Origin: a virus
Strand: one strand, 5' to 3'
DNA length: 64,000 nucleotides
Virus record (IMG/VR): IMGVR_UViG_3300033146_001759
Span: 1-64,000 of that record
This document shows positions 9 through 64,000 of the stretch, one piece after another. Position numbers and translations under genes: made by a program. Each line of letters starts with the position of its first letter. Position 1 is the first letter of the stretch. The notes beneath the pieces were generated by a model, which saw only the letters and a program-made list of their open reading frames with translations, was not told the origin of the DNA and ran no database searches.

Positions 9-509
9 ATGGAAAATAAACACAAAAACAGAAAAAAGTATTTAAATATGGAAGATAAAGATCTAGTAGAATTATGTATAAATAAACCAAATATCGGTTA
101 TAATAAATTTTATAAAAAATATTATACTAACTTTTATAATTTTGCAAAAAAATATACAATAAATTCTCAAAATTTAGATGAAATCATATCTATTTCATTT
201 ATAAAAATATTTAAAAAAATACACACACTAAATGATCCAAAAAAATTAAAAAGTTGGTGCAAAATAATCATAAAAAATACATCATTAAATTTTATCCGTG
301 AAAATAAAAAACACGAACATTTAGAATTTTTAGATTATATGGATTTTAATGATGATGAAATTTATGTTGATGAATATAAAGGCATTTCAAACGAAAAATT
401 ACATAAATTAATAAATGAATTAGCCCCAAGATATAGAGAAGTTATGATAATGTATTATTTTAATGGATATTCACACCAAGAAATATCAGATATTTGTCAA
501 TTATCATAA
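9..509 (+). CDS. ECF-type RNA polymerase sigma factor, C-terminally truncated
   Basis: 166 aa. The order of motifs fits a group 4 (ECF) sigma factor: a region-2-like N-terminal half with the segment LDEIISISFIKIFKKI, then a region-4 start with LINELAPRYREVMIMYYFNG and YSHQEISDI. The protein stops at ICQLS, in the turn of the region-4 helix-turn-helix, so the recognition helix expected to read the -35 element is missing. The last 6 bases overlap the convergent gene that ends at 504. Start at 9 is the first ATG; an ATG at 48 is an alternative. It could redirect host RNA polymerase, act as a decoy or be decaying. Confidence 0.7.
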   Translation: MENKHKNRKKYLNMEDKDLVELCINKPNIGYNKFYKKYYTNFYNFAKKYTINSQNLDEIISISFIKIFKKIHTLNDPKKLKSWCKIIIKNTSLNFIRENKKHEHLEFLDYMDFNDDEIYVDEYKGISNEKLHKLINELAPRYREVMIMYYFNGYSHQEISDICQLS

Positions 510-1136
510 TACCTCTTTATTTAATATCATTCTAACTGTGGATTCAACACTACCCCCATGATAACTATCTAGTACACCCACAACATCTATAATATCTACA
601 CTAAACATATTACCTAGTGCAGCAATCATATCAGTTTTAATTTTGGTTTTATCTGATAAATAAAAATTCATTTTTTTTAAATTCATATCAAACACATCTT
701 CATCAACACCATACTCAATAAACCCCTTTTTTACAACACTTGTATCTATAAATCTAAATCGTTTACCTTTTGCATATATAATTAATACATCATTAGTATT
801 CATATCAAAATCATATACTTTTTCTTTCGAATTTTGATAATCAAATGCTCTATTTGAATCAGCATATGTATTTGCTACATTATATTTATCTGTTAAAAAT
901 AATGGTTTAGGATAAACATATGTAGTTTTAAAATTAGATACATCATTTAATAATTTGAAATATTCATCACTCAATCTTTCACTTTTTGATAATTCATCCA
1001 TATGATTATAATAACCATCAACATCTTTTAATATTTCAACAGATGTTTTTTCACCCCCATAATTAAATGAGTTTGCTTCTGGTGTTCCATGATACCATTT
1101 TTTTTCACTAATATAATATTTAAAATTCTTTATCAT
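504..1136 (-). CDS. putative ADP-ribosyltransferase-fold protein with capsid-targeting-like leader
   Basis: 210 aa. The N-terminus MIKNFKYYISE resembles the T4 head-targeting peptide and contains I-S-E, a gp21-type cleavage triad. Directly after it comes WYHGTPEA, the H-G-T signature of many H-Y-[EDQ] ADP-ribosyltransferase folds, then LFLTDKYNVANTYAD, which fits the second ART motif (substrate lid, A-x-x-Y). The end has a striking VVGVLDSYHGGS segment. The ART reading is family-pattern inference; catalytic residues are not proven. A TATATA-rich box lies just upstream of the ATG, as for the virion genes. Likely role if correct: packaged and injected protein that modifies a host target using NAD+. 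Confidence 0.55.
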   Translation of the reverse strand: MIKNFKYYISEKKWYHGTPEANSFNYGGEKTSVEILKDVDGYYNHMDELSKSERLSDEYFKLLNDVSNFKTTYVYPKPLFLTDKYNVANTYADSNRAFDYQNSKEKVYDFDMNTNDVLIIYAKGKRFRFIDTSVVKKGFIEYGVDEDVFDMNLKKMNFYLSDKTKIKTDMIAALGNMFSVDIIDVVGVLDSYHGGSVESTVRMILNKEVL

Positions 1137-1157
1137 ATACTATATATTAAAAATTAA

Positions 1158-2336
1158 TTATAATAAATCTTTTAAATATTGATTAAATACAATATTAACT
1201 TCTTCTTTATATTTCATGGGGAAACATATAGAATCATGTATTGTAAATAATTTGATTTTTGGAAATTCTTTTTTTATTGTTGTTACAACTTTATTATAAA
1301 TAAAATCAGATTCTATTTTTTGTAATTTATGGGATAATGATTTATAATCATCGTGTAAATATTTATATTCTTTTATATATGAATATACTGTTGGATATAC
1401 TTTTTTAAACAATATATTTTCTAATTTTTTATCAATATTTTTTCCGAATAATACCTTATACATCATCACCTTCGCATCATTCCTAGTAGATAATATTTTA
1501 GGATATTTTTCTAATAATTGTTCATATATTAACCCATTTTTCACAACATCAAGAAATTCAATAATATCATCAGTATAATCTTCTTCATTAATTTCATTTT
1601 TTAAATATACAGCAAAAAAATATGGTTGAGAATTAGGTAAATCTATTTCTCCAATTTCATCACCATTAATCGACAAAAAATTATTTCTAATATGCTTTTT
1701 TAATACCGTATAATTTGTATGTAATCTACCATATGAATCAAACTTAAAAAATATATGACCAGTATTAATACCATCTATTGATGCTAAATTTTTAAAATAT
1801 TTTTTTAGTTCTATGGTTTTATTTTTTTTCTCACCTTTTAACCACACTAATGATAAATCATAATCTATATTAACATAATATAAATCATCGATCAAAATTT
1901 TTCTTAATTTCATACTTATTGGTGAATCTTGCATTGCTGTAAATGACCTAATAAGATATTCTTTTTTATGCTTTTTTAATAATATTTTATCTGTTATTTT
2001 GGTTCTCATTACATCCAATCCAGTAATATTCATTTTATATGTTTTTGCTTTCTTACCAACATAATAAGACGATACTAAATACATAAAATCATAATCCAAT
2101 AAATACGAAATATAATAATTATAATATTTACCATATTTTTTTTTCAATATCACCGACCACAAATTATGTTCCACATCATCCAATAAAAAATATTTTAATA
2201 TTAATTCATGCATTATATTAATCAAATATGCTGTTTTTATAGTTATTCCCTTATATTGAATTTTTTCTATATTCGTTAAATATTCGTATTCTTTTGGTAT
2301 AAATTGATATAAATACCCCTTGTCTGTTCTACACAA
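1158..2336 (-). CDS. compact family-A-polymerase-like protein (DNA or RNA polymerase palm)
   Basis: 392 aa. Three spaced motifs look like the palm and fingers of family A DNA polymerases and T7-type RNA polymerases. These are SYGRLHTN near residue 205 followed by IDLPNSQPYFF near 233 (motif A, Asp), NDAKVMMYKVLFG near 290 (motif B, Lys with aromatic) and TIHDSI near 367 (motif C, His-Asp). No 3'-5' or 5'-3' exonuclease domain fits in the N-terminal 200 residues. The phage also has a B-family polymerase, so this is more likely a specialised polymerase, primase-polymerase or RNA polymerase than the main replicase. It is separated from its neighbours by short AT-rich gaps. Confidence 0.55.
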   Translation of the reverse strand: MCRTDKGYLYQFIPKEYEYLTNIEKIQYKGITIKTAYLINIMHELILKYFLLDDVEHNLWSVILKKKYGKYYNYYISYLLDYDFMYLVSSYYVGKKAKTYKMNITGLDVMRTKITDKILLKKHKKEYLIRSFTAMQDSPISMKLRKILIDDLYYVNIDYDLSLVWLKGEKKNKTIELKKYFKNLASIDGINTGHIFFKFDSYGRLHTNYTVLKKHIRNNFLSINGDEIGEIDLPNSQPYFFAVYLKNEINEEDYTDDIIEFLDVVKNGLIYEQLLEKYPKILSTRNDAKVMMYKVLFGKNIDKKLENILFKKVYPTVYSYIKEYKYLHDDYKSLSHKLQKIESDFIYNKVVTTIKKEFPKIKLFTIHDSICFPMKYKEEVNIVFNQYLKDLL

Positions 2337-2388
2337 ATTTTATTGATTATTTTTTCTTTTATATTTTTATAATATTTTAAGAAAAAGT

Positions 2389-3767: not shown

Positions 3768-4598
3768 TTAAATTTTTTTCTTCTTTATTGTATTATTAGA
3801 TGTATCATATAAATAAAAGTTAATATCATATAGATCTATTATTTCATTGAAATATTTTTCTATACTATTAATATTACCAATATCATCATCACTAAAACCT
3901 AATTTAACTTTCATATTAACTCTTTGTCCAAATTTATTTATTTTTTTAGAAAATTCATTAATTGCATATTTTTTACCAAGTTCTGGATTCTTAATATTTA
4001 TATCCATATCATATTTTTTCATAAACTCAGGCGAAGTTACACCAAAAAAATCACAACTATCTAAATATTTATCTATCAACAAATCATCATTATTTATGTT
4101 TTCATTAAATAATTTTTTAAACCACATTAAATTTTCCAACATTAAATAGTGTTGTTCTGGTGTTAAATATTCATAAATTATTGTTTCTACCCCTCTTCTT
4201 AATATATCCACAGAGGATGCTCTAGCAGTAATAATAGCAAATAATTCACCTTTAACTAGTGTATCAATAAACATATCAAATGATGGACCAAACAATTCTT
4301 CTTTTAAAGAATCTCTAATATTTTTTATAAAATATTCATCATCTCTAAATTCAATAAATGATTCTTCTGGATCACCATTAACATATTTATATTCACCTAT
4401 TTGTGGTGTATCTTTTATATCATTTCTAATTTCAGCAAACTTAGAAGTTGAAATAGCAATTCTATCATAACCACCTATTGTTTTTTTATCTAAATGTATT
4501 TTTGTTGGCATAAATAATATATTATCATCCCAATCATACGCATAAAAATGTAACTCATTTTTTATACCAATATCATTAAATGTTTTATATTTTTTCAT
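3768..4598 (-). CDS. HAD-like hydrolase-type protein with capsid-targeting-like N-terminus
   Basis: 276 aa. The segment FYAYDWDDNILFMPTKI (about residues 18-34) carries a D-x-D pair like the nucleophile motif of HAD phosphatases (a DWDD core); a later FAIITARASS is in the position of the HAD Thr/Ser motif, and GFSDDD near the end suits the final acidic motif. Substrate unknown. The first 15 residues (MKKYKTFNDIGIKNE) resemble the leader shared by candidate head-packaged proteins, with K-N-E rather than the ideal I/L-x-E. Short AT-rich gaps separate it from its neighbours. Confidence 0.55.
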   Translation of the reverse strand: MKKYKTFNDIGIKNELHFYAYDWDDNILFMPTKIHLDKKTIGGYDRIAISTSKFAEIRNDIKDTPQIGEYKYVNGDPEESFIEFRDDEYFIKNIRDSLKEELFGPSFDMFIDTLVKGELFAIITARASSVDILRRGVETIIYEYLTPEQHYLMLENLMWFKKLFNENINNDDLLIDKYLDSCDFFGVTSPEFMKKYDMDINIKNPELGKKYAINEFSKKINKFGQRVNMKVKLGFSDDDIGNINSIEKYFNEIIDLYDINFYLYDTSNNTIKKKKI

Positions 4599-8484: not shown

Positions 8485-8820
8485 ATGAAATATATTAAAA
8501 AAATATCAGAAGATAAAGTTTTTAAGTTCAATGATTATAATCCAACAAAATATAATGGGAATATAATAGTAACAAATATAATGGAGTGGTTAAGAGCACA
8601 CCTATTAGATAATGATAAAAACAAAGAAACAATTAATGTTCCACTTAATCAATTTTTAGCGGAAACACAAATTGATATTAATAAACTTAAAACATTTATT
8701 AATGAACAAAACAAAACAGATAAACTTGAATCATTTAAAATAAAAATAGAAAATAATTATATTATATTCTATGATTTCAAGAAAAACACACACGCATTAG
8801 AAGACATCAATACTATATAA
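8485..8820 (+). CDS. small protein with capsid-targeting-like leader
   Basis: 111 aa, not recognised. Begins MKYIKKISED, with I-S-E at residues 7-9 as in the putative head-targeting peptide. A TTTTTATATATACATTT box lies directly before the ATG, matching the candidate late promoter. The rest is soluble and charged, possibly a small helical DNA-binding or packaged protein. Confidence 0.55.
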   Translation: MKYIKKISEDKVFKFNDYNPTKYNGNIIVTNIMEWLRAHLLDNDKNKETINVPLNQFLAETQIDINKLKTFINEQNKTDKLESFKIKIENNYIIFYDFKKNTHALEDINTI

Positions 8821-10921: not shown

Positions 10922-12055
10922 ATGTCAGTAATAAATTTAAAAAGTCAAACAGATTTATCAGGTTTTTATATCATATATAAAGGTTCAGTACAAAATGAAA
11001 AATCAGGGAATTTTGGAATTTCACATTTAATGGAACACCTAGTATATAAAAGTATTGATTATTTAATGGATGATTTTGATCGATATGGTATAGCAAACAA
11101 CGCATATACATCAGACACAGAAATCGTTTTTTATATAACAGGGTTAGATGAATATATAAACAAATATAAATCTGAAATTTTAGAAAAACTATTAAAATTC
11201 CAAATAACAGAAGAACAGTTTATAAACGAAAGACAAATCGTATTACAAGAATATGATATGTATTTTGGACAACGAACTGAAAACCATTCTTTAAATTTAA
11301 ATAGAAAATTATTTAATACATATGATGCTATTGGTTATAAACAAGATTTAGAATCATTATCATATAAAGACATTAAAGATTATTTTGAATTACAATTCAC
11401 TAAACCACACACCATAATCAATGTTTCCAAACATAATGATTTTAAAACAGATATTGAATTTTCAAATGCAACATATTCCAATATCATATCATATCAAGAA
11501 ACTCCAAAACAAGAAACTATATATGAACCAATTAACTTAACACCAGGTAAAGTTAGCTTAATTAATGTCAACAAAAATGTTATAATACAAGATTTCCCAT
11601 ATATATCATTCATAACTAGAATGTTAGGACATGGACTTCAAAGTCCACTATACCAAGAAATAAGAGAGAAAAAGGGGTTAGTATATTACGTTAGATGTAG
11701 TTTAGATAGAATGAGCGACAATTCTGGAATATTACATTTTTCTAGTGAAACATCCGAAGATTTAGTTGAAGAATTTCAAAACACATTAAAAGAAATATTA
11801 GACAACCCCAAAAAATATATGACACAAGAAAGGTTTGATATTATATATGATGCCATAAAAATATCTTTAAAAACATCTAAAATAAATAGATATAGTAATG
11901 TAAATAAATACATAACACCAAAAGAATGGCAATCAGAATATATATTACCTAATTTAACATTAAATAAAATAATGGATTATTACGTTAAATATTTTAATTT
12001 TGATGATTTATATTTAAGTATTGATTCTAACGAAACATTTAATAATAAAGCATAA
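10922..12055 (+). CDS. M16-family zinc metallopeptidase-like protein
   Basis: 377 aa, about one half of a two-domain pitrilysin/insulinase repeat, as in bacterial M16B subunits. The inverted zinc motif HLMEH is at residues 35-39 and a third ligand Glu is available in ERQIVLQEYDMY (Glu103 or Glu110). A second half with LYQEIREKKGLVYYVRCS matches the conserved R/Y substrate-binding segment (usually ...LR-E-K-x-G-L-x-Y). It probably cleaves peptides or small proteins. Phage-borne M16 peptidases are uncommon; the target could be a host or scaffold peptide. The ankyrin gene starts within its stop codon. Confidence 0.75.
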   Translation: MSVINLKSQTDLSGFYIIYKGSVQNEKSGNFGISHLMEHLVYKSIDYLMDDFDRYGIANNAYTSDTEIVFYITGLDEYINKYKSEILEKLLKFQITEEQFINERQIVLQEYDMYFGQRTENHSLNLNRKLFNTYDAIGYKQDLESLSYKDIKDYFELQFTKPHTIINVSKHNDFKTDIEFSNATYSNIISYQETPKQETIYEPINLTPGKVSLINVNKNVIIQDFPYISFITRMLGHGLQSPLYQEIREKKGLVYYVRCSLDRMSDNSGILHFSSETSEDLVEEFQNTLKEILDNPKKYMTQERFDIIYDAIKISLKTSKINRYSNVNKYITPKEWQSEYILPNLTLNKIMDYYVKYFNFDDLYLSIDSNETFNNKA

Positions 12056-12609
12056 TGATTACGAAACTAAAAATATTTGAAATGAACCACATATCGGAAT
12101 TTGATTTCAATTCATTAGATGATATTAAATATTTTGTGGAAAAAGAAAATGGTGATATTAATAATTTTAATACTCCACTAATTATATATTTTATAAATAA
12201 ATTTAGTTTGAAAGATGATGAAGAGGAAATTTATAAAATAACCAAATACCTATTAAAAAATGGTGCTAACATAAACGCTCAAACCAATTTACACACACCA
12301 TTAATATGTACACTAATTAATGGATTTCATAAAGTTTCAAATTTTTTAATTGATAATGGTGCAGATCCAAACACAAAACCATTAGGAAATGGCACTGATA
12401 CCCCACTACTAAAAGCATTAGTTATTAATAAATTACACAAAACTAAAATAGATCACACCATAATCAAACTAATAAGAAAAGGATCAAAATTACATCATAA
12501 TGAGGTAAAACTTTTAACACCAACACTATTAAAATACATTAAACACATTTTCAGAAAACAATGGAATAAATACGAAAAAGAAAATACTTTAGATAATTTT
12601 AATATTTAA
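12055..12609 (+). CDS. ankyrin-repeat protein with leader-like N-terminus
   Basis: 184 aa. Two ankyrin-type units are visible: YLLKNGANINAQTNLHTPL and FLIDNGADPNTKPLGNGTD followed by TPLLKAL. Ankyrin repeats mediate protein binding. It starts MITKLKIFEMN, with I-F-E at residues 7-9, similar to the candidate capsid-targeting peptide, and ends DNFNI, an ending shared with several other proteins. Its ATG overlaps the M16 peptidase stop, suggesting translational coupling. Confidence 0.7.
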   Translation: MITKLKIFEMNHISEFDFNSLDDIKYFVEKENGDINNFNTPLIIYFINKFSLKDDEEEIYKITKYLLKNGANINAQTNLHTPLICTLINGFHKVSNFLIDNGADPNTKPLGNGTDTPLLKALVINKLHKTKIDHTIIKLIRKGSKLHHNEVKLLTPTLLKYIKHIFRKQWNKYEKENTLDNFNI

Positions 12610-20185: not shown

Positions 20186-21535
20186 TCAATTATTATACCA
20201 TTCATTTTCATATTTCTTAATAACTAAATACATTTCATCTTGTAAAAATTCTCCTAAATCATAAAGAAAAAACTTTATAGTATCAGATATATCATCTTTC
20301 CATATCTCTGTTCCATCTATAAGATCAAATATTTTATCAAAATCTATTATTTTTAAAAAATTATCATTACTTTTTAAATTATAAATATAATTATATTTAA
20401 AGAACTCATTATCTGATATTATCATTTCACTGAGCTTAGTTTTTATAGCTGAAAATGTTGATTTTAAATATTTTTTTATTTCTGGTATATTATAATAATT
20501 ATTAATAAAATCACCATTTTTATCATATGAATTATATTTACTACTACTTAATATTTTATTAAGATAATCATCAACATACTTTTTCATTTTTTTATTAATA
20601 TCATCATTAAATTGTTTTTGTGTTGTTTTACCAATATATAATTTATATTCTAAATATTCTTTAATTGTTTTCGTATTATGCTTAACCATATCATCAGATA
20701 ACATCTTTAAAATATTTCGAGAGATTATGTTTGTAGTAGATCTCATATTATGTATATCAGCACCAATACTATTTTCTAAATCTCTTGCAAAAACCCTATT
20801 TTGATATTTAATATGTTTTTCATAATCAATTATCCTATTTTTTATAGAATATAACTCTTTATCAGAATATTCACCTGTTAAATAATCATATAATTTTTTT
20901 TCATTTTCTATATCTTTTACTATATATAATGCCCCAATTTTATATATATAATCTAATGATTTATAGTCATCATCATCAATAATTTCTTTTGGTGAAATTT
21001 TTCTATTTTTATTACCACTATTAAAATATTTTTCATCATCATAAAAATTTATTTCAATGTTTAACTTTTTTGCATTTTCAATAATATCTTTATATAATTC
21101 TTTCTTTGAATTTAATATATCAATAGATATTATATATTCATTAATATTTTTTATTTCATCTTTATTAGATATTAATCTTTCTTCCATTTCATCAAGACTA
21201 GTATTATTTATCATTGATTTAACATCTCTTGGAGCATTCCAATAATCTATATTTATTATTTTATTATTATAATTTAATTTTTTTCCATCAAATTTAATTC
21301 TAACAGCACCATCAAATGAAAACCTATTTCCATATCCATGTTTTATAGATTTAGTTCTAGTCAAAGAAAAAAAGTACATCTTATTATTATTTTTATTATT
21401 ATCTGCAACAGATCCTATTGAACTTGTTAAATATAATTTATTTGTTTCAAGAATATTCTTCAATCTTCTAATATTTGTAAAATGATATAATATATCAGTC
21501 GCTTTTTCTAATATAAAATTATTAAATTTTTTCAT
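20186..21535 (-). CDS. putative ADP-ribosyltransferase-fold effector with capsid-targeting-like leader
   Basis: 449 aa. The leader MKKFNNFILEK is the best match here to the T4 head-targeting peptide and ends in I-L-E. It is followed at once by ATDILYHFTNIRRLKNIL, an H-F-T start as in ART-fold toxins and antitoxins. Then come a YFFSLTRTKS strand, an INIDYW loop and LDEMEERLIS, whose Glu pair would fit the catalytic acid. The C-terminal 270 residues are helical and charged, of unknown role. A TATATA box precedes the ATG. Interpretation: a late, packaged, injected NAD+-using effector; the enzymatic call is pattern-based. Confidence 0.55.
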   Translation of the reverse strand: MKKFNNFILEKATDILYHFTNIRRLKNILETNKLYLTSSIGSVADNNKNNNKMYFFSLTRTKSIKHGYGNRFSFDGAVRIKFDGKKLNYNNKIINIDYWNAPRDVKSMINNTSLDEMEERLISNKDEIKNINEYIISIDILNSKKELYKDIIENAKKLNIEINFYDDEKYFNSGNKNRKISPKEIIDDDDYKSLDYIYKIGALYIVKDIENEKKLYDYLTGEYSDKELYSIKNRIIDYEKHIKYQNRVFARDLENSIGADIHNMRSTTNIISRNILKMLSDDMVKHNTKTIKEYLEYKLYIGKTTQKQFNDDINKKMKKYVDDYLNKILSSSKYNSYDKNGDFINNYYNIPEIKKYLKSTFSAIKTKLSEMIISDNEFFKYNYIYNLKSNDNFLKIIDFDKIFDLIDGTEIWKDDISDTIKFFLYDLGEFLQDEMYLVIKKYENEWYNN

Positions 21536-21643: not shown

Positions 21644-24600
21644 ATGCCAATACAAAATAAAGATTTAGGTAAATATGATAGACCAGATATATTTATCAAT
21701 GAAATCAACGATTCTTTTATTGATTTACCACAACAAGATACATTAATAAACTTAGTTCCTGGATTTTCAAAAAATGGACCGGTTATGACACCAGAAAAAG
21801 TATCTACACCAGATGAATTTAAAAAAATATTTGGAGATATAGATAAAGGACTTGAAAGAAAAGGTTCATTTTTTCACAGAACATGTTTAAAAATGTTAGA
21901 ATCTGGACCAATATACGCATTAAATTTATTATTAACAAATGATGATAGAGATAAAGCAAATTGGAAATCAATATCTTGTGCATCAAATTATAAAAATGAC
22001 ATAACTAAAAATATGCCATATTCAAGATTATTTAATAGACAAGATTTTTGGAAAAAAGATTCTGAAACATTCTTAGATTATGTTAATGATCCACAAGTAG
22101 ATTATGATAGAGTTTTACATTTATCTAACTTAGGTAATAAAGTAACTACTACATTTATTTTCAAATCAAAAATAAAGGGGTTTGATATAACTGCTGAAGA
22201 TTGGTATAATGGTAAAACTAATGTACCACAATATATTAACAATAAAGATTGGGTATCTGATTATATCGTATCTGTATTAGTATTAGATGGTGATTGGACA
22301 CAATATGATAATTTATCTTCTGATCAACGTTGGGGGAATTATTTTACAAAAGATGGTTTAGATAAAAATAAAGTACAAAATTTTGTTGATGAACCAACTG
22401 TTAATACATTAGCTTATTATGATGCATCATTAATACCTTACTTTAAAGATTTTAGTGATAGAGATATGTATATTAAAAATTTAATTAATAATGACACAAA
22501 TAAAACTGGTCTTTTTTGTGCATATTTTGAAGATGAAATTTTAGATGCTGATTTTCCAATTGGTAAAATAGATTTAATTGGACAAAACTTAGTAGGAGAG
22601 AATATATCAACTGATATTAATTTCTTATCATATAAAGAATCAATAGCCGAAAATATCACATATAATGAAACAGATTTAGATGATATAGGAAACGTTTTCG
22701 GTAATTATGCTATTTTAAAAGATGAATTTGTTGCTGGTTCAAATAGAACTGCAAGATATACAAACCATTATGTAAATGGTATGACAATCGGAAATACTGG
22801 TAGTATGATATTTAAAGAAGTTATTAGTTTTTCAGCACCATCTACAATAAGTTTAGCTAGTGCTGGTGCTAATATAAATGATAAAATATTCTTTAATAAA
22901 GATTATGATTCAATAATTGGATTCAATGAAACAAAAGCATATTATATCAAATCTATATCTGGTAGTGAGATAACAATATCTGAATCTATTGGTGGACCAA
23001 CATTAACATTTGTTAGTGGAACTAAAAGTGATATGTATGTAACAAGCATTAAACACGATTACACTGCAACCGGAACACCATCGGATCCAGCATATTTTAA
23101 TATTTCTAATACATCATATAGTATTTTAAGTGGAGCATCATTAAATATACAATTAGATCCTATATATTTTGATGATAATATACAATCATTTGAAAGATAC
23201 GATATATTATATTTATCAAGAGAAAATGATGCTAAAATACACATATTAAAAGGTGACCAATCAGAAGAAAATTCAACTGCACAAAAACCATATTTCACTT
23301 TAGATTATAATGAACATATAATACTAGGTGTTATAAAAATCAGTTTAGTTAGTGGTGTATTAAATACTTCATATAATGGCATAACAATAAGTAATACTGG
23401 ATATATACCATTTAATCTAAATATATCTAGTGGGACAACAACATCAAATTATATATCAATCGAATTTAATGGTACTAATGGGGTAACTGATTATACTAAT
23501 TATATGCAAATAAGAAATAGAAATAAATATGATGAAATAGAAAAAAACCTATTAAATGGTAAAGGAGTATTAATATCAAATAATGATGCAAGTAAATATT
23601 ATATAACAAATACAAATTTAACTACAATTGATTATAATAATACATCAAATGCTACAATAAAAATTTATGGTATGGATAATGCATCTGATTATTATTCAAC
23701 TAGTGATCTATTATTATATTATATTGATAATGAATTTAATACACCAAATTCATTTAAATACATCAAATCATTAACAGTTAATACATCAGCAGATACTGCT
23801 ATTATTGGTAAATATTCTAATTTATATCAAGATTATTACAATGGACAAATAAACAATGGTGATATTATTTATTTAAATAATAATACTGGGACTACTATTT
23901 CTAATAATAATATTCCAATAAATGGTTATTTTATAGATGATTTATTATCAATTGATTTAGATTCATTTATAATTGATTTTGATACTACTTATGATAAAAA
24001 AATAATCATAAAATCAAATAATTCATCATATAAACAAACTGTTGAAATTGAAAAAACTATACCGGCTGATATATTAAACCCAATGGAAACAACATATTCT
24101 ATTAAAGTTGATAAAAATAGATATAATGAATTAATTAGGGGTGAATTTTTAGAAGCATATTACAATGTTAATGATTTAGTATATGGTGAATCACCAAAAA
24201 CATTAACTAGAATTATTAAAGTACAAAATGATTTAGATGATGAATCACTAAAAATATTAACTTGTGATGCACCAATAAATTTAACAGAATATCCTATTGG
24301 TAGTAGAAAATTTAATACTATGACATATCCAACAATTGATAAATATGTTAAAACATATAAAGGTATTAAATTAACACCATTTATAATTAGTCCAGAATCT
24401 ATACCTAACGGTACAGAAGAAAGACAATCTAATATTTTAAATTTATTACACCCTAACACTAATTTAGGTAAAGGATTAATAAATAAAAATAAAATACAAT
24501 GGAGATATTTAATTGATAGTTTTGGACTTGGTTTAACATCAAACTCAAAACAACAATATGCTGATTTATTAGGTAAAAAATTAAATTCATTTGGATTTAT

Positions 24601-25399
24601 TTCTGCACCATCTGTAAAAACATTTAAAAAATCAACAAACCCAAGTTTTATAAATGATGATAAAACATTAAACACAAATTATTTGAAAACTGGTGGAGAT
24701 GAATTAAAAAACCCATCATTTTTATATAGTTTTGCAACCGGTGTAGGTAAATCAACAATAGGTTACTTCTTCCCATATATTAATGTTAATAATGATGGTA
24801 TTCCTAGTGATGTACCACCTGCAGCATATGTTGCAACAACATATATGCAAAAGTTCTTAACATCATCATCAGCAATCCAACCTTGGACAATAGCTGCTGG
24901 TATTAGTAATGGTAGATTAAATGGTGTTGGGGATGTTGAAATGGACTTCACTGATGAAGATTTATCAAATTTATATGGTATGGGATTAAATCCAATCGTT
25001 AAAAAAGCAAAAGCTGGATATTGCATAAATTCTGAATCAACAGCAGCAGTATTCCCATATTCTTCATTATCTGTTATACATTCAAGAGAAGTCTTAATAG
25101 AATTAGAAAATGCATTATATGATATGCTATTAAGATACCAATGGAGATTTAATACTGGAGCAATTAGAGCAGAAATAAAATATAAAGCTGATAAGATTTG
25201 TCAAGATATTGAAAATAGAGATGGTTTATATTATTATAATAATGTTATTGATGAAACTAACAATACTAATTATATTATTGATTTACAAATGGGTGTATTA
25301 TATACATACATAGAAATAATTAAAGGTATGGGTATCATCGTAAATAACATTACTATTTTAAAGAAAGGTGATATTCAATCTGGTGGATTTTCATCTTAA
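21644..25399 (+). CDS. contractile tail sheath protein (T4 gp18-like)
   Basis: 1251 aa, about twice T4 gp18 (659 aa). The N-terminus (KYDRPDIFINEINDSF, LVPGFSKNGPVMTPEKV) and the C-terminal 350 residues are typical of sheath subunits. The latter include YVATTYMQKFLTSSSAIQPW, the core GRLNGVGDVEMDFTDEDL, the handshake-forming end TNYIIDLQMGVLYTYIEIIK and an Ile-rich last strand. The extra length sits between about residues 380 and 830 as Ser/Thr/Asn-rich strand-rich insertions, probably surface domains. Own promoter-like box and terminator. Confidence 0.85.
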   Translation: MPIQNKDLGKYDRPDIFINEINDSFIDLPQQDTLINLVPGFSKNGPVMTPEKVSTPDEFKKIFGDIDKGLERKGSFFHRTCLKMLESGPIYALNLLLTNDDRDKANWKSISCASNYKNDITKNMPYSRLFNRQDFWKKDSETFLDYVNDPQVDYDRVLHLSNLGNKVTTTFIFKSKIKGFDITAEDWYNGKTNVPQYINNKDWVSDYIVSVLVLDGDWTQYDNLSSDQRWGNYFTKDGLDKNKVQNFVDEPTVNTLAYYDASLIPYFKDFSDRDMYIKNLINNDTNKTGLFCAYFEDEILDADFPIGKIDLIGQNLVGENISTDINFLSYKESIAENITYNETDLDDIGNVFGNYAILKDEFVAGSNRTARYTNHYVNGMTIGNTGSMIFKEVISFSAPSTISLASAGANINDKIFFNKDYDSIIGFNETKAYYIKSISGSEITISESIGGPTLTFVSGTKSDMYVTSIKHDYTATGTPSDPAYFNISNTSYSILSGASLNIQLDPIYFDDNIQSFERYDILYLSRENDAKIHILKGDQSEENSTAQKPYFTLDYNEHIILGVIKISLVSGVLNTSYNGITISNTGYIPFNLNISSGTTTSNYISIEFNGTNGVTDYTNYMQIRNRNKYDEIEKNLLNGKGVLISNNDASKYYITNTNLTTIDYNNTSNATIKIYGMDNASDYYSTSDLLLYYIDNEFNTPNSFKYIKSLTVNTSADTAIIGKYSNLYQDYYNGQINNGDIIYLNNNTGTTISNNNIPINGYFIDDLLSIDLDSFIIDFDTTYDKKIIIKSNNSSYKQTVEIEKTIPADILNPMETTYSIKVDKNRYNELIRGEFLEAYYNVNDLVYGESPKTLTRIIKVQNDLDDESLKILTCDAPINLTEYPIGSRKFNTMTYPTIDKYVKTYKGIKLTPFIISPESIPNGTEERQSNILNLLHPNTNLGKGLINKNKIQWRYLIDSFGLGLTSNSKQQYADLLGKKLNSFGFISAPSVKTFKKSTNPSFINDDKTLNTNYLKTGGDELKNPSFLYSFATGVGKSTIGYFFPYINVNNDGIPSDVPPAAYVATTYMQKFLTSSSAIQPWTIAAGISNGRLNGVGDVEMDFTDEDLSNLYGMGLNPIVKKAKAGYCINSESTAAVFPYSSLSVIHSREVLIELENALYDMLLRYQWRFNTGAIRAEIKYKADKICQDIENRDGLYYYNNVIDETNNTNYIIDLQMGVLYTYIEIIKGMGIIVNNITILKKGDIQSGGFSS

Positions 25400-37159: not shown

Positions 37160-37924
37160 TTAATTATATATATTTGTAATATAATTAGTGACATCACCAA
37201 ACATTATTATTTCCTTTTCAGTACCACCAATAACCATTTTTATATCTGAATACTTTACTTCTATTTCAACAACTTCAGAATATTTAGCATAAATTGGACT
37301 CTGATACCCACCAGTAAATACATATTTAGAAAATCGTTTAGCTTCTTTTAACTCTGTTGTCCAACAACTAAATCCATTTTTTGGTTTATATTTATCTTTT
37401 AATCCTCTATATAATATTATTTTATCTGGTATATCACCACCATAAATATCCATTATATTTTTATAATTCCATTTACCAAGATTCCTCATTTTTAATATTC
37501 TATTTAATATTCTTGGACTACACGTTTGTGAGTTAAAATGATCAACAGACATATCATCTAATAAATCAAATGATTTTTCAACGTTGTTATTAGTAATTAA
37601 ATATAAATCATAAGGTATTTTTTTTAATGGATATTTAACATTATCATTATCATCCTTATATTTATATTTAATAACATCTTCAAAATTTTTATATGGAAAA
37701 TATATAGAAAAATATTTTTCATACCCATCATCTATTTGATATGTATTATGTTTTTTATTATACTTAACACAATCAAATTTTTCTAGTGATTCAACATATC
37801 CAACACCCATTCTAGTATCATTTTCCCACATAGATATTATCATTTCTCTATGTATATATAACATATATAACCAAGCAACATTATATATTGTAATATTATC
37901 ATAATCTTCAAATTTTTTAATCAT
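37160..37924 (-). CDS. putative mono-ADP-ribosyltransferase (R-S-E type) with leader-like start
   Basis: 254 aa. The C-terminal half shows the R-S-ExE layout of arginine-type ADP-ribosyltransferases, the class of T4 Alt. Arg173 is in IILYRGLK, Ser186 in FSCWTT followed by ELKEAKRFS, and the ExE turn Glu236-x-Glu238 in GTEKEIIMFG, preceded by a VVEIEVKYSDI strand. The N-terminus MIKKFEDYDN is a weaker version of the shared leader. A TATATATATAAAT box precedes the ATG. In T4 the equivalent enzyme is packaged in the head and injected to modify host RNA polymerase; target here unknown. Confidence 0.68.
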   Translation of the reverse strand: MIKKFEDYDNITIYNVAWLYMLYIHREMIISMWENDTRMGVGYVESLEKFDCVKYNKKHNTYQIDDGYEKYFSIYFPYKNFEDVIKYKYKDDNDNVKYPLKKIPYDLYLITNNNVEKSFDLLDDMSVDHFNSQTCSPRILNRILKMRNLGKWNYKNIMDIYGGDIPDKIILYRGLKDKYKPKNGFSCWTTELKEAKRFSKYVFTGGYQSPIYAKYSEVVEIEVKYSDIKMVIGGTEKEIIMFGDVTNYITNIYN

Positions 37925-48762: not shown

Positions 48763-49713
48763 TTATTTTTTAATTTCTTCTAAATATGGTGAAATTAATT
48801 CCGAAAATGTTTTCTTAACATCTTCAATATACTCTTTACCTATTGATGTTATCTTATTAGTTAATGGGTTAAAATCATCACCTATTTCTTTTGCTGGTGT
48901 TTTTGCTTCAGCATCATCATTAGAACTTATTCGTTTAGCTGTTACTTCACCACGATCATTCACATCTGATATAACTATTTTTTCTTTTTTACCATCTTTT
49001 GTTTCATAATTATAAACATCACCTTTTTTTAATTCTTTATTATGATCTTCATTTTTAGCTAATTCTTCATCTAATTTTTTCATTGATTCTTTTTGCTTAT
49101 TTTGAATTTTTTTCATTTTATCTGAATATTCATTATTTGCATCTTTTTCACTCATTTTTAAACCATTTACTAAAAAATCTATTTTTTTCTTAATTATATC
49201 TTCTTCCAACTCAACCATTTTTAATTGAGCATACATTTTAGCAGTAAATATTTCTTCACCTTTTTTATTTTTTATATATGGTTCTATTTTTTTGTGAGTT
49301 AATTTTATTTTTGTATTTATAGCTTTATCTAATTCATTTTCTGCTTCCTTTGAATCTTTTGTTGATGTATCCTTTGTTTTTGTGTGCTCTTCCATATTAT
49401 CAACAATACTTTCTTCTATAACATTATCTTCTTTATCTTTATCATCGGAATGATTCTCACTATCAATATTTTTTTTATCATTTATTGATTTTTTAAAATC
49501 TTCAACTAAATTTTTCTGTTTAAATAAGCTTTCTATATCTTCTTTTGCAGAAGCAATAATAGGATCTATTTTTTTAGCCACTTTTATTTTTTTTGCATAA
49601 TCTAACAATTTACCCCCCAAAAACTTAAACATTTTTCCTAATATACTTTCATTTATATTATTATTTTTCTCATTTAAAAAATCATCATATGTTTTTATAT
49701 TTTTTAATTTCAT
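48763..49713 (-). CDS. highly charged protein with capsid-targeting-like leader (core/scaffold candidate)
   Basis: 316 aa. Starts MKLKNIKTYDDFLNEKNNN with L-N-E at residues 13-15. The rest is Lys/Glu-rich and predicted helical/coiled (LKMVELEEDIIKKKIDFLVN; MKKIQNKQKESMKKLDEEL) with a KOW-like strand segment (LKKGDVYNYETKDGKKEKIV). Composition suits an internal core or head-packaged protein such as T4 gp22, gp67 or an internal protein. TTAATATATAAATAAAA box upstream. Confidence 0.55.
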   Translation of the reverse strand: MKLKNIKTYDDFLNEKNNNINESILGKMFKFLGGKLLDYAKKIKVAKKIDPIIASAKEDIESLFKQKNLVEDFKKSINDKKNIDSENHSDDKDKEDNVIEESIVDNMEEHTKTKDTSTKDSKEAENELDKAINTKIKLTHKKIEPYIKNKKGEEIFTAKMYAQLKMVELEEDIIKKKIDFLVNGLKMSEKDANNEYSDKMKKIQNKQKESMKKLDEELAKNEDHNKELKKGDVYNYETKDGKKEKIVISDVNDRGEVTAKRISSNDDAEAKTPAKEIGDDFNPLTNKITSIGKEYIEDVKKTFSELISPYLEEIKK

Positions 49714-60004: not shown

Positions 60005-61015
60005 TTATATATTAAAATCATACACCAATATTAATTCTTCAAATTCATTTTCAATATCACTATTCATGATTTTTATTTTTCTTAATATTTTATATCTTTC
60101 TATTTGTTTTTCTTCATTATTTTTTTTATATTCATTACTATATATATCCAAAGTATATAAAATATAATTTTTTTGCCACTCACTCGATTTAATCATCTTT
60201 TCAAAATCACCACCACATTTAAATATTTTTTTTAATTGCCAATCTTGTTCAGTAAGTATAGACATCAATATATTTTCTTTATTATCATTTATTTTATTTT
60301 TTAAGCTTATTAATATATCATTTATATCTTTATATAATTGCTCTTTTTTATTTTCGTTTACTTTATATAAATCATCAAAATTTTCAATCTTAACCACTTC
60401 GGATCCATATTGTTTTAAATATGATAATATATTTGAAATACCACCTTCATTTAATTTTTTTAAATCTATTATTATTTCAACATCATCACCATCAAATTCA
60501 AATTCAAATGGAATATTTACATTATTAGCATATAATACTTTTGCGCTTTGTAAAACATATCCTATATTATATCCTATATTCTCAACAAAAGTATGCAATT
60601 TTGTATATCCTAATAATTCAAATAATGTTTCAAATCTATCATCTTCATCATATTTTAAATTAAACAACGCATTTATTTCTTTGGAGGTTTTCATAGCATC
60701 ACCATTAAAATAATCTACATATTCTGTGTTTTCCACTGATTCATCTGGTGGATCCATAGACAAATAATCATTATACATCTTTATACTATAATCTTCTGCA
60801 TCAAAATCAAAAAAATCATTCAAATCCCCAATATCCATAAATAATGAAATTTTCTTTTCAGTTAAATCTATTACATATTCTTTTACATCATCTATACCAA
60901 TTAATTTTTTTATATGTTCTTTATCACCAAATTCAAATTCATATATTATATCATCTCCCAATGGGATAGTATCACCATTTTTTTCTTCTTTTATAAAATT
61001 ATTAAATTTTTTCAT
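60005..61015 (-). CDS. leader-bearing paralogue 1 of 3
   Basis: 336 aa. Leader MKKFNNFIKE. The body is a helical, acidic protein with a central strand domain (IPFEFEFDGDDVEIIIDLKK) and a C-terminal block CGGDFEKMIKSSEWQKNYIL shared with the next two genes; it ends VYDFNI. TTTAATATATAATAATT box upstream. Probably a head-packaged protein; no enzymatic motif seen. Confidence 0.6.
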   Translation of the reverse strand: MKKFNNFIKEEKNGDTIPLGDDIIYEFEFGDKEHIKKLIGIDDVKEYVIDLTEKKISLFMDIGDLNDFFDFDAEDYSIKMYNDYLSMDPPDESVENTEYVDYFNGDAMKTSKEINALFNLKYDEDDRFETLFELLGYTKLHTFVENIGYNIGYVLQSAKVLYANNVNIPFEFEFDGDDVEIIIDLKKLNEGGISNILSYLKQYGSEVVKIENFDDLYKVNENKKEQLYKDINDILISLKNKINDNKENILMSILTEQDWQLKKIFKCGGDFEKMIKSSEWQKNYILYTLDIYSNEYKKNNEEKQIERYKILRKIKIMNSDIENEFEELILVYDFNI

Positions 61016-61023: not shown

Positions 61024-62064
61024 TTATATATTAAATTCATCTGCTGCTACCAAATATTTAAATTCTAAAACAATATCATCATTAATTAAATTATTACTTT
61101 TTAATTCATTATATTTATCTAACATAGTTAATTTCTCACTATATTCATTTTTAGTTCTCCCATTCACAAGATATTCTTTTTGCCATTCATATGATATAAT
61201 ATTATCATAAAAATCACCACCAATTTCTTTTATATAAAAACTATGTTTTGGTAATAAATCGTTTGCTATTTTTTCTGTATTTTTTTTCATATATTCATAA
61301 ATAGTTTCCAATTGTTTTTTAATTTTACTATCAAATATATTTTTTTCTTTTTCATTTATATCAACATCTGTATCTATGTCATCTATTTTTGAAATATTTT
61401 TACTCATATTATCTAATGCACTCTTAATATCATTAAAATCATCAGCCATTATAGTTAAATTAAATGTCATTCTAACTTTATCCCCAACTATATTAAAATA
61501 TAAATATGTTAATGATTCATCTATTTTTTTAGCTACTATTTGCATTAATTGTGTATATATAGATTCAATATATGATATTATTTCATCTAGAGTATCTTCT
61601 ATTATTTTATGTTTACTATAAAATATAACTTGTTTTATCATATCAACAAAAGTATCTTCATCTGGTGATTTAATATTAAACAATTTATATATTTTTGTTA
61701 ATATTTCTTCATGTTCAGTATTCAAATATGCATTTAATCTAAATTCTGAAAATTTATATTCATTATCTAACAATTCAATATATTCTCTTAACATAGTATC
61801 ATCTATTTCTAAATAATTACTAATATCATCTTCATCAACATCAATATCAACATATGTTCTATTATGTAAATCACGATGAGTATAACTACAATCATAAACC
61901 ATATATGATTCTAATTTAACTAATTTATCTATTTCTTCTTCATACCTATTTTTTTCATCATCTGACAATTTTTTAAATTCTTCTTCAGTTAAATAAATAG
62001 AATAAAACTTGTCTGCTAGTATTAATTCCTTATTTTCAAACAAAAACGTATTATATCTTTTCAT
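61024..62064 (-). CDS. leader-bearing paralogue 2 of 3
   Basis: 346 aa. Leader MKRYNTFLFE (L-F-E). Shares with paralogue 1 the layout and the block GGDFYDNIISYEWQKEYLV, and ends AADEFNI. The central strand domain reads YFNIVGDKVRMTFNLTIMAD. TATATAAG box upstream. Role unknown. Confidence 0.6.
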   Translation of the reverse strand: MKRYNTFLFENKELILADKFYSIYLTEEEFKKLSDDEKNRYEEEIDKLVKLESYMVYDCSYTHRDLHNRTYVDIDVDEDDISNYLEIDDTMLREYIELLDNEYKFSEFRLNAYLNTEHEEILTKIYKLFNIKSPDEDTFVDMIKQVIFYSKHKIIEDTLDEIISYIESIYTQLMQIVAKKIDESLTYLYFNIVGDKVRMTFNLTIMADDFNDIKSALDNMSKNISKIDDIDTDVDINEKEKNIFDSKIKKQLETIYEYMKKNTEKIANDLLPKHSFYIKEIGGDFYDNIISYEWQKEYLVNGRTKNEYSEKLTMLDKYNELKSNNLINDDIVLEFKYLVAADEFNI

Positions 62065-62067: not shown

Positions 62068-63114
62068 TTATATATTAAAATCTCCAATTACAATAAATTT
62101 TTCTCCATCTTCTTTTATTTGTGGGTGAATTATATCTTTATATTTAAACATAAACTCCTTATAATTTTTTTCAATATCATTATTCCTAAAGATATATGAT
62201 TTTTGTTCATCATATTTTTTTAATTCATCAAGGAACAATCCTCCCATATTATAAATATCACCATAAAATTTATATGTAATTCTATTAAGAATATCTTCTT
62301 TATTATTTAAAATATCAACATATAAATTATCTAATTCATTTGATACATAATCATTAAATTCTTTAGATTCATCATTTGATAGTTTAATATTTTTATATGT
62401 ATTTATTTTCTCAAAATTATCTTTATTATATTTTAAAACATCACTTATATTTTTTATATCATTTGGTAATATTTCAATATCTATTTTAATATTTATATTT
62501 AATTCATCCAATTCAATCGTCATATATTTAAAGTCATTATTTATATTTTCTACATTTTTTTTTACTAAATCTCTACTAATATTATTCATTCTATTGATTA
62601 TATTAGCATAATTTTTAAACCAAGTATAAATTAACATTTCATTTAATACTAAAAAATAAATTCCTATTTTTTGTTCATTTTTATCAATATTAAATATATC
62701 TAATATCTTTACTATTTTATTTTTATTATCATCAGTTAAAAACTCAAATAATGTTTGTTGAGTTATTAGTTTTTCACCTTCTAAAATATCAAAATAGTTA
62801 TATAAAAACCATTTTTTAATTTCCAATAAATCCGCAAATATACTAGAATCACTAATAATATTAATTATATTAGGTTTTTCATATTCTACTAAAAGTTTTT
62901 CTTGATACTTAATATTATTACTTTTTATAATATCTTTCATTTTTCTATAATTAAATCTATTTTCATTTGATATTTTTTTCACATAATCATAATCAATATC
63001 CATTAATATTGATGCTTTATTCTTCAATGATAAATTACTAAATTCGGTTAATGATAACAATTCCCAATTTTTTATTGATTCTAATATAAAATTATAATAT
63101 TTCTTCATCTTCAT
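62068..63114 (-). CDS. leader-bearing paralogue 3 of 3
   Basis: 348 aa. Leader MKMKKYYNFILE (I-L-E). The related C-terminal block reads GGLFLDELKKYDEQKSYIF and the end is VIGDFNI; the strand domain is FKYMTIELDELNINIKIDIE. Most diverged of the three. A TATATATATA box lies just before the ATG. Confidence 0.6.
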   Translation of the reverse strand: MKMKKYYNFILESIKNWELLSLTEFSNLSLKNKASILMDIDYDYVKKISNENRFNYRKMKDIIKSNNIKYQEKLLVEYEKPNIINIISDSSIFADLLEIKKWFLYNYFDILEGEKLITQQTLFEFLTDDNKNKIVKILDIFNIDKNEQKIGIYFLVLNEMLIYTWFKNYANIINRMNNISRDLVKKNVENINNDFKYMTIELDELNINIKIDIEILPNDIKNISDVLKYNKDNFEKINTYKNIKLSNDESKEFNDYVSNELDNLYVDILNNKEDILNRITYKFYGDIYNMGGLFLDELKKYDEQKSYIFRNNDIEKNYKEFMFKYKDIIHPQIKEDGEKFIVIGDFNI

Positions 63115-63155
63115 ATATATATAAAATCAATTTCTTCTTTTTAATATATACTTTT

Positions 63156-63503
63156 ATGAAATTATTAAAAACATATAATCAAATATTTGAAAACACTAAT
63201 ATAAATAATATTTCTGTTGGATATTTTGTAATATTAAAATCACCAAAACATATTCCCGGTTTTAGTAAAAAACAATATTCTATATCTGAATATTTCTTCA
63301 AAAATAATATTGGTGTAATAACAAAAATAAACGGTGGTGATATTTATGTTAAATATTACAATACTCCATCATTAATATCATCAAATTTATTTAATGATGA
63401 TAATGAAGTAATTGCTGATAATAATGATATTATGTATTATAACAAAGATTTAGATATTTTAAATAATAAACATATTAACATTATAAAAAATAAATTTATA
63501 TAA
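63156..63503 (+). CDS. leader-bearing small protein
   Basis: 115 aa. Leader MKLLKTYNQIFE (I-F-E) followed by a small barrel-like domain: VGYFVILKSPKHIPGFSKKQ and NIGVITKINGGDIYVKYYNT. TTTTTAATATATACTTTT directly before the ATG. Its stop overlaps the next ATG. Confidence 0.6.
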   Translation: MKLLKTYNQIFENTNINNISVGYFVILKSPKHIPGFSKKQYSISEYFFKNNIGVITKINGGDIYVKYYNTPSLISSNLFNDDNEVIADNNDIMYYNKDLDILNNKHINIIKNKFI

Positions 63504-63655
63504 TGAAAATTTTAAAATATTATAATCACTTTTTTAACGAAGATACTTACATTGAAAATAGTATTGAAGATGAATTATGGTATATGATACACCACAATTC
63601 AAATATAAATACAATTAAAGAAGTAATTAAAAATGATGTTGATTTTAATATATGA
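63503..63655 (+). CDS. leader-bearing 50-residue protein
   Basis: MKILKYYNHFFNEDTYIENS start (F-N-E), end IKEVIKNDVDFNI, which looks like half an ankyrin unit. Overlaps neighbours at both ends (TAATGA, ATGA), supporting a real operon member; probably a truncated relative of the following ankyrin gene. Confidence 0.55.
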   Translation: MKILKYYNHFFNEDTYIENSIEDELWYMIHHNSNINTIKEVIKNDVDFNI

Positions 63656-64000
63656 AAATAATAAAAACATATAATGAATTATTTGAAAATGATTCAAATA
63701 ATAGTCGATTCTTAAATTTAAAACATTATTTAACTAATGATAACTTATACGAAGTCAAAAAAATTATTGATGGATATGATTTCAATAAAATATTCATTGG
63801 GATATTAAAACAAACTATTTTATGTTATGCTACAAAATATAGTTTTGAAATAATGAATTATTTATTAGAAAATGGTGCAGACCCAAATCTAACACACAAA
63901 GAATATATAGATTATCCCATAATCCAAGCAACAAAATCAAGAAACAGTAAAAAAGTAAAATTATTATTAAAATATAATGCTGATGTTAATGTTATTCATA
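63652..64000 (+). CDS. leader-bearing ankyrin-repeat protein, 3' end outside window
   Basis: At least 116 residues. Leader MKIIKTYNELFE (L-F-E), then ankyrin units EIMNYLLENGADPNLTHKEY and KLLLKYNADVNVIH reaching the window edge. Candidate packaged protein-binding effector. Confidence 0.65.
   Translation, partial: MKIIKTYNELFENDSNNSRFLNLKHYLTNDNLYEVKKIIDGYDFNKIFIGILKQTILCYATKYSFEIMNYLLENGADPNLTHKEYIDYPIIQATKSRNSKKVKLLLKYNADVNVIH

What the first reader, a model, noticed from the sequence alone, without database searches (positions are those of the whole stretch)
504..64000. A shared capsid-targeting-like leader marks some fifteen candidate head-packaged proteins
Otherwise unrelated proteins start with near-identical peptides ending in [ILF]-x-E: MIKNFKYYISE (504), MKYIKKISE (8485), MITKLKIFE (12055), MKKFNNFILE (20186), MKIIKFSEFDVINE (35970), MKLKNIKTYDDFLNE (48763), MKKFNNFIKE (60005), MKRYNTFLFE (61024), MKMKKYYNFILE (62068), MKLLKTYNQIFE (63156), MKIIKTYNELFE (63652). 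Weaker forms occur at 3768, 37160, 50063 and 63503. T4 internal proteins start MKTYQEFIAE, are sorted into the prohead by it and cut by gp21 after [IL]-x-E. Most genes listed also have the TATATA late-type box.
Basis: partly seen in the sequence, partly recalled or inferred. Interest (0 to 1): 0.92.

Follow-up and report, generated by a model that had tools for sequence, protein, structure and literature searches.

The report
Megaphage head-sorting leader resembles scaffold repeat
A giant phage related to the largest known phage puts the same short start peptide on many unrelated proteins, probably a ticket that sorts them into the virus head for injection into the host, and that ticket looks like one unit of a repeat in the phage's own head scaffold.

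Summary
The leader is real but narrower than listed. The loose rule [ILF]-x-E is not enriched (23 of 109 proteins, 16 expected); the core [FY]xx[FYI][ILF]xE is (9 of 110, 1.1 expected). Seven of the 15 listed genes pass a profile trained on two other phages; two more lie just outside the window. The contig's capsid protein is closest to those of 634-735 kb uncultured phages. The profile marks 61 of 1011 proteins of the 735-kb one (about 2 expected) and puts T4 IPII and IPIII at ranks 2-3 of 256, but misses IPI and probably Alt. Conserved positions equal those that matter in the T4 capsid targeting sequence. The window encodes a T4-type capsid and an S77 protease fused to a scaffold with 12 tandem 14-residue units that resemble the leader core; such arrays occur in 12 of 12 close relatives. 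A late-type box precedes 8 of 11 leader genes, 11 of 96 others. Best reading: T4-style capsid targeting, greatly expanded, leaders resembling the scaffold repeat. Packaging, cutting and injection are inferred. Unexpected: phage-specific C-terminal tails.

The parts
28357..30951 (-). Prohead protease (S77, T4 gp21-type) fused to a long scaffold-like domain, 864 aa
   Evidence: PF03420 1.2e-9 and phrog_207 7e-28; H and S at T4 positions 85 and 140 and an N-terminal L-x-x-E invariant in 7 of 7 aligned
29542..30024 (-). Scaffold array: 12 units at exact 14-residue spacing (residues 310-470), core [YF]S[ED]Y[IL]AE in 11 and YMNYIAE in the last
   Evidence: lag-14 self-identity 0.45 against 0.04 and 0.05 at lags 13 and 15
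26589..28283 (-). Major capsid protein (gp23-type); conserved M-N-E ends at residue 42, a candidate cut site
   Evidence: PF07068 8e-26; MNEN or similar in the relatives' capsid proteins
32067..33809 (-). Portal protein
   Evidence: phrog_213 1.6e-62
34582..35106 (-). Head closure protein
   Evidence: phrog_218 7e-39
21644..25399 (+). Tail sheath protein
   Evidence: phrog_34521 2e-91
504..1136 (-). Leader protein MIKNFKYYISE
   Evidence: profile 8.6; box at 1141-1150
20186..21535 (-). Leader protein MKKFNNFILE; possibly ADP-ribosyltransferase-like
   Evidence: profile 20.2; Tox-ART-HYD1 at E 0.013, below its cut-off; homologs in two Vibrio phages begin with a leader-like peptide
48763..49713 (-). 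Leader protein MKLKNIKTYDDFLNE
   Evidence: profile 17.7; box at 49733-49742
60005..61015 (-). Leader protein MKKFNNFIKE, ends DFNI
   Evidence: profile 21.1; homologous to 61024, E 3e-7; box at 61025-61034
61024..62064 (-). Leader protein MKRYNTFLFE, ends EFNI
   Evidence: profile 8.4; homologous to 62068, E 8e-7; box at 62069-62078
62068..63114 (-). Leader protein MKMKKYYNFILE, ends DFNI
   Evidence: profile 19.7; box at 63116-63125
63503..63655 (+). Leader ORF MKILKYYNHFFNE (50 aa), ends DFNI
   Evidence: profile 13.1
63156..63503 (+). Second-form N-terminus MKLLKTYNQIFE
   Evidence: profile 3.6; second form; box at 63141-63150
63652..64000 (+). Second-form N-terminus MKIIKTYNELFE; ankyrin repeats; the gene runs to 64233 of the contig
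   Evidence: PF12796 5.7e-12; no late box within 40 nt
12055..12609 (+). Second-form N-terminus MITKLKIFE; ankyrin repeats; no late box
   Evidence: PF12796 5.2e-7; profile -8.8
3768..4598 (-). No good leader here; homologs in the 735- and 634-kb phages carry one
8485..8820 (+). Borderline leader MKYIKKISE
   Evidence: profile 5.4; box at 8470-8479
37160..37924 (-). Borderline leader MIKKFEDYDNI
   Evidence: profile 5.8; box at 37932-37941

Best explanation
The core leader, M-(K)-x-[FY]-x-x-[FY]-[IL]-x-E, is a capsid targeting sequence of the T4 kind. Proteins made late carry it; the aromatic residues bind the scaffold core of the growing prohead, so the protein is built into it. The phage's S77 protease then cuts after [IL]-x-E, which frees the protein inside the head, from where it would be injected with the DNA. 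In this clade the scaffold is fused to the protease and is itself an array of 14-residue units with nearly the same core, so the leader most likely works as a loose copy of a scaffold unit: it joins the scaffold helices, and the same enzyme cuts both. Shown here: the motif, its enrichment, the match to T4 IPII and IPIII, the protease, the array, the late box. Inferred: binding, cutting, packaging, injection.
For: Leader core in four array-bearing phages: 9/110, 43/1011, 20/480, 15/526 against 1.1, 3.0, 2.2, 1.9 expected. A profile trained on two phages marks 61 of 1011 proteins of a third (2.0-2.4 expected), in 49 families, and ranks T4 IPII and IPIII 2-3 of 256. Conserved positions = T4 residues 4, 7 (targeting), 8, 10 (processing). 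Codons vary synonymously, so the peptide is conserved. Scaffold array in 12 of 12 close relatives; the leader profile's richest interior target is that protein in 4 of 4 array-bearing genomes. Late box, leader v other genes: 8/11 v 11/96, 21/61 v 107/912, 11/31 v 49/433, 13/26 v 78/484. Best cross-genome homologs of leader proteins carry a leader in 11 of 33 v 32 of 696 for others, with 24-44% identity in the rest. In the 735-kb phage an 84-aa protein has a leader (..YLNE) and, six residues on, a stretch like the capsid protein from two residues after its MNE.
Against: No virion proteomics. 22 of 33 best homologs fall below the threshold, and the 33 include reciprocal pairs and repeat-protein families. 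8 of 15 listed genes fail the profile. Two of the four known T4 proteins are not caught: IPI scores 2.7 (rank 6) and the ORF I take for Alt -11.2 (rank 185 of 256). Lak-A2 and PTm1, with the same capsid type, show few (2/420, 3/303; 0.6-1.2 and 0.6-0.7 expected), so it is not general. The 462-kb phage has leaders without a clean array and without this late box. Some marked proteins carry metabolic domains (PPK2, RNase H, poly-A polymerase). The late sigma family phrog_234 was not found in this contig, the 735-kb phage or G001-G003.
Confidence: 0.83

Rival explanations
1. The leader is a targeting signal to some other place (a phage compartment, the membrane, the tail), not to the head core.
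For: No packaging data; the marked set is functionally mixed (LRR, PPK2, NUDIX, ART); a different shared C-terminal tail also exists in these phages.
Against: The four key positions are those of the T4 head signal, a similar core is arrayed in the scaffold, and T4 IPII and IPIII are recovered by the profile.
Confidence: 0.08
2. The shared N-termini are a by-product of an A/T-rich genome and of start-codon context, with no protein function.
For: 23% G+C; lysine-rich starts; the loose [ILF]-x-E rule is indeed not enriched.
Against: The core exceeds shuffled first residues of the same proteins and interior methionine starts; synonymous codon variation; Lak-A2 (25.9% G+C) and PTm1 (29.7%) are more A/T-rich than the 735-kb phage (32.2%) yet show few leaders.
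Confidence: 0.03
3. The leaders spread by recombination of a promoter-plus-leader cassette, and only some copies are functional packaging signals.
For: Leader genes lie side by side in parts (LR756500: 7 adjacent pairs, 0.9 by shuffle; LR756501: 8, 3.7 by shuffle); the late box often abuts the leader; leader present on one PPK2 and absent on another in the same phage.
Against: Adjacency is not above chance in the window contig, G001 or LR745206. This concerns origin more than function and is compatible with the best explanation.
Confidence: 0.06

Closest known systems
Capsid targeting sequence of T4 internal proteins IPI, IPII, IPIII and Alt (Mullaney and Black 1996, as told in PMC9026906, passages)
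   Same: Length about 10 residues, aromatic at 4 and 7, Ile/Leu at 8, Glu at 10 (spacing to Met looser here), diverse mature parts, S77 protease in the genome, late-type box
   Different: Tens of marked proteins instead of four; the scaffold is fused to the protease and made of 14-residue units resembling the leader (no such array in T4 gp22); a second N-terminal form and phage-specific C-terminal tails
Ejection proteins of SPN3US and phiKZ (PMC5694885, PMC7411985, passages)
   Same: Giant phages that pack many proteins, several cut by a homologous protease
   Different: In SPN3US propeptides are mostly over 100 residues (one, gp45, has 20) and the cut motif is A-x-E; phiKZ sites quoted are S-x-E
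Injected polyvalent proteins and ADP-ribosyltransferases of jumbo phages (PMC7824862, abstract and passages)
   Same: Similar enzyme classes; 69996 matches ART-PolyVal
   Different: The passages seen mention no shared leader

Membership tests
T4-type capsid targeting sequence | N-terminal 10-20 residues with aromatic 4 and 7, hydrophobic 8, Glu 10 | tested here: met
   7 of 15 listed genes and 9 of 110 proteins of the contig; 8 of the 15 listed do not meet it; the Glu lies at residue 10 in 27 of 148 leaders, later in the rest
T4-type capsid targeting sequence | S77 (gp21-type) prohead protease with conserved His and Ser in the same phage | tested here: met
   that H85 and S140 are the catalytic residues is recalled, from no call
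T4-type capsid targeting sequence | Attached to unrelated mature proteins | tested here: met
   61 leaders in 49 families in LR756501; 9 in 7 in the contig
T4-type capsid targeting sequence | Late expression | tested here: inconclusive
   box association; no expression data; phrog_234 late sigma not found in this partial contig nor in LR756501
T4-type capsid targeting sequence | Removed by the prohead protease; protein found in the virion and injected | not testable with these tools
   no virion data
ADP-ribosyltransferase (ART-PolyVal, PF18760) | Profile match over cut-off | tested here: met
   69996 only: 72.5 bits, cut-off 31.2; its leader is weak (7.9) and lacks the Glu
ADP-ribosyltransferase (Tox-ART-HYD1, PF15633) | Profile match over cut-off | tested here: not met
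   20186: 16.6 bits, cut-off 25

The most novel reading that the evidence does not exclude
In the clade of the largest known phages the head scaffold is a repeat array of a sorting code, and dozens of accessory proteins carry one loose copy of that code as their leader, so that almost any gene could become a packaged, injected effector by gaining some ten residues. A second, phage-specific C-terminal tail marks another, partly overlapping set. The phage head would then be a programmable delivery vehicle with an injected arsenal far larger than that of T4.
Probability: 0.4. Interest if true: 0.88.

Novelty: new variant of a known kind. Interest (0 to 1): 0.72.

Why it matters
It would let sequence alone list the proteins that giant phages inject at the first moment of infection, a set now unknown for uncultured phages and possibly rich in counter-defence enzymes. 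It also offers a simple answer to how T4-type leaders recognise the core: they imitate the scaffold. Both are testable with T4 packaging assays and with proteomics of one cultured relative.

Tried and rejected
Loose [ILF]-x-E as the mark: rejected, not clearly enriched. That ARTs dominate the cargo: not upheld; PF18760 was found in 1 of 11 records and in 1 of 150 leader proteins (where 57 of 82 families are not shown); motif resemblances that I saw in 504, 65284 and 37160 were not confirmed. Structures: the model of 504 alone is useless (pLDDT 29.6); the 60005-family model is weak (57.9) and Foldseek gave no match with E <= 0.001. Relatives of 504 and 20186 in viral contigs: none; of 504 in phages: none. 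PDB sequence searches with 504, 69996, 37160 and 3768: no useful match. C-terminal DFNI as a mere promoter by-product: not settled; 64237 and 12055 keep the peptide with other codons. T4 gp22 as a bearer of the same array: no. A 1691-aa protein of LR756501 (21458) also holds 6-7 core matches at 58-61 residue spacing; perhaps a tape measure, set aside. Adjacency of leader genes as evidence: above chance in 2 of 5 genomes only. Earlier reports: nine paper searches; none of the listings, nor the passages opened, mentions this leader in huge phages; most subscription papers are not held, so absence is weak. Dropped before counts: ORFs under 50 aa; ORFs overlapping a longer one by 25% or more; two TTG-started ORFs, and from then on all ORFs without ATG. 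LR745206, LR756500 and Lak-A2 were read over their first 381 kb only, G001 over 343 of 344.6 kb. The core pattern and the late-box pattern were chosen after looking at the list; the profile is the independent check for the former, the three relatives for the latter. In one search a homolog counted as having a leader at score >=6, with an alternative Met in its first 30 residues allowed, for both groups.
Full report
What the window is. The window is bases 1-64,000 of a 72,957-bp IMG/VR contig, 23.3% G+C. It holds a T4-type head and tail module: sheath, major capsid protein, prohead protease with scaffold, portal, head closure. The nearest capsid proteins are those of the uncultured phages LR756501 (735 kb, 63% identity; LR756503 has the same length and match), LR745206, LR756502 and LR756504 (634-642 kb, 48-53%), then LR756500 (462 kb, 33%), Lak phages and Tenacibaculum PTm1 (28-29%). 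PMC7162821 (passages) reports genomes of 634, 636, 642 and 735 kb, places its largest genomes in a clade Mahaphage and predicts Bacteroidetes hosts; that these are the same records is my inference from the lengths. The contig is thus probably a small part of a very large phage.

Is the leader there and beyond chance? All 15 listed peptides can be read. The rule as given, [ILF]-x-E near residue 10, is not clearly enriched: 23 of 109, 16.3 expected from interior stretches. The core [FY]xx[FYI][ILF]xE is: 9 of 110 (1.08 expected; shuffle maximum 4 in 200), and in relatives 43 of 1011 (2.96; LR756501, W01), 20 of 480 (2.17; G001), 15 of 526 (1.86; LR745206, W02) and 19 of 484 (1.74; LR756500, W04). 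It is at chance in Lak-A2 (1 of 420, 0.93) and PTm1 (1 of 303, 0.78); in T4 it finds 4 of 256 (0.69). The core was chosen after seeing the list, so I trained a profile on 35 hits of W02 and G001 and scored the rest: 61 of 1011 in W01 (2.0-2.4 expected), 9 of 110 in the contig (0-0.55), 21 of 484 in W04 (1.3-1.8), 2 of 420 in Lak-A2 (0.6-1.2), 3 of 303 in PTm1 (0.6-0.7), 3 of 256 in T4 (0.3). The T4 three are gp61.1, IPII and IPIII; IPI ranks sixth at 2.7, and the 683-aa ORF I take for Alt (by recall of its start, not looked up) ranks 185 at -11.2. So the profile finds two of the four known T4 signals. Counts for W02 and G001 (26 of 526, 31 of 480) include training members. With ORFs of 100 aa or more only, the excess remains (W01 57 of 708, 1.5 expected; contig 8 of 80, 0.4).

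Which listed genes hold up. Seven of 15 pass: 504, 20186, 48763, 60005, 61024, 62068, 63503. 8485 and 37160 are borderline. 12055, 63156 and 63652 fit a second form, [ILVM]Kx[YF] at residues 3-6, found in 11 of 110 (1.5 expected) here and in excess in the four other phages with leaders (39/1011, 40/480, 44/526, 25/484 against 10.3, 6.0, 4.5, 5.7), little or not in Lak-A2, PTm1 and T4 (9, 5, 2 against 4.3, 3.0, 2.1). What this second form does is unknown. 35970, 3768 and 50063 are not supported by their own sequence.

Match to the T4 signal. PMC9026906 (passages) reports that the first ten residues of IPIII suffice for targeting, that targeting lies mainly in residues 4 and 7 and processing in 8 and 10. 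Of 148 leaders scoring 8 or more in five phages, the aligned positions are Y 86 or F 56; F 108 or Y 30; I 77 or L 50; 133 have Glu at the last one. That position falls at residue 10 in 27, 11 in 43, 12 in 14 and 13 in 48 of 148, so the spacing to Met is looser than in T4. Codons at these positions vary synonymously (TAT/TAC, TTT/TTC, ATA/ATT/ATC, GAA/GAG), so the peptide, not the DNA, is kept.

The scaffold array. The protease gene continues into a scaffold-like part with 12 units at exact 14-residue spacing, core [YF]S[ED]Y[IL]AE in 11 and YMNYIAE in the last. Arrays of the same spacing occur in 12 of 12 close relatives (L002-L013; not all independent: L002 lies in G001, and L010 and L011 look like one phage). 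The 462-kb phage has a degenerate one. PTm1 showed none; Lak-A2 showed none among the proteins of its first 381 kb, where its protease match lies. Scanned over all interior positions, the leader profile hits this protein more than any other in 4 of 4 array-bearing genomes (15 of 55 hits in the contig; 12 of 251, 11 of 178, 11 of 166); in the 462-kb phage and T4 the top protein is another. The likeness is of the core only; the units have A where leaders often have N or K.

Cutting. His and Ser at T4 positions 85 and 140 and an N-terminal L-x-x-E are invariant in 7 of 7 proteases aligned (that these are the catalytic residues is recalled). A capsid protein was read in 12 of 16 sequences: MHQMNEN in the window and 8 relatives, SINEN in L012, LYEN in L014, INEN in PTm1, each shortly before a conserved GMG. 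That the cut lies there is inference. After the Glu, Asn is commonest in leaders (26 of 133) and in scaffold units (50 of 150). In W01, an 84-aa protein (730457) has a leader ending YLNE and, six residues further on, sequence like the capsid protein from residue 45, two residues after its MNE (50% over 38 residues). This suggests, but does not show, one common cut rule [ILM]-x-E.

Timing. TTAATATATA or TTTATATATA lies within 40 nt upstream of 8 of 11 leader genes of the contig (score >=7) against 11 of 96 others (p 2.8e-5), with the same trend in W01, G001 and W02, but not in W04, T4 or PTm1. It also lies within 45 nt upstream of the window's capsid, protease, portal and head-closure genes; not of the sheath gene. 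The late sigma family phrog_234 was found in W02, W03, W04, W05 (weakly), W06 and T4, not in the contig, W01 or G001-G003.

Cargo. 150 leader proteins against 150 length-matched others: the leader set matched 82 Pfam families, the control 141; among the 25 shown for the leaders are LRR proteins (5), PPK2, a SMODS-associated NUDIX, PNK3P, ART-PolyVal, RNase H and poly-A polymerase domains. The NUDIX sits in W02 at 340824 with leader MILDFLSFINE. PPK2 of W01 (152222) and W02 (143761, from an internal Met) carry leaders; a second PPK2 in W01 (447796) does not. In the contig, 69996 is an ART-PolyVal protein with a weak leader lacking the Glu. 20186 is ART-like only weakly; its homologs in two Vibrio phages read, one filed under Straboviridae, begin MKKFNEFAxELxEA, while the homolog in the 108-kb Sen-NF phage starts at the domain itself and that of Salicola phage SCTP-2 with a short start without the core. 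Best cross-genome homologs of leader proteins carry a leader in 11 of 33 cases against 32 of 696 for others; 22 of 33 fall below the threshold.

Verdict. T4-type capsid targeting, on a far larger scale than in T4, with a scaffold built of similar units. Packaging, cutting and injection remain to be shown.

Noticed in passing
LR756501 (W01), pieces L017-L055: 40 proteins in 39 families carry DPYGEExW at or near the C-terminus. They were picked by DPYGE; the following Glu and the Trp are present in 40 of 40, and third codon positions vary synonymously, so the peptide is kept. Not tied to the leader (4 of 61 leaders; 36 of 917 with neither N-terminal form).
   Followed up: partly
G001 pieces L056-L073; LR745206 pieces L075-L094: Other phages have their own C-terminal tails: K[ML]GLL in G001 (51 matches to a broad pattern; 50 to a tighter one in 35 families), RDxKIxxIL in LR745206 (55 matches to a broad pattern, some spurious). 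Reminiscent of cargo-loading peptides; a recalled likeness only. No comparable C-terminal signal in Lak-A2, PTm1 or T4.
   Followed up: partly
window 12055, 55580, 60005, 61024, 62068, 63503, 63652 and L001 4237, 4766: Nine proteins (4 families) end in [DEN]FNI; 7 of 9 have one of the two N-terminal forms. In most the tail coincides with a TTTAATATA-type box, but two keep the peptide with other codons. In LR756500, 12 proteins (4 families) end in NADDFGFFDN-like tails, 10 of 12 with an N-terminal form.
   Followed up: partly
LR756501 11386-11787 (minus): A second, short S77-protease match (181-aa frame), and another in LR756500 at 154951-155127.
   Followed up: no
T4 18966-19130 (L074): gp61.1 begins MKTFKEFIKE and ranks first of 256 T4 ORFs on the leader profile: a candidate further packaged protein.
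   Followed up: no
window 10922-12055: An M16-type peptidase gene directly before the ankyrin protein 12055.
   Followed up: no
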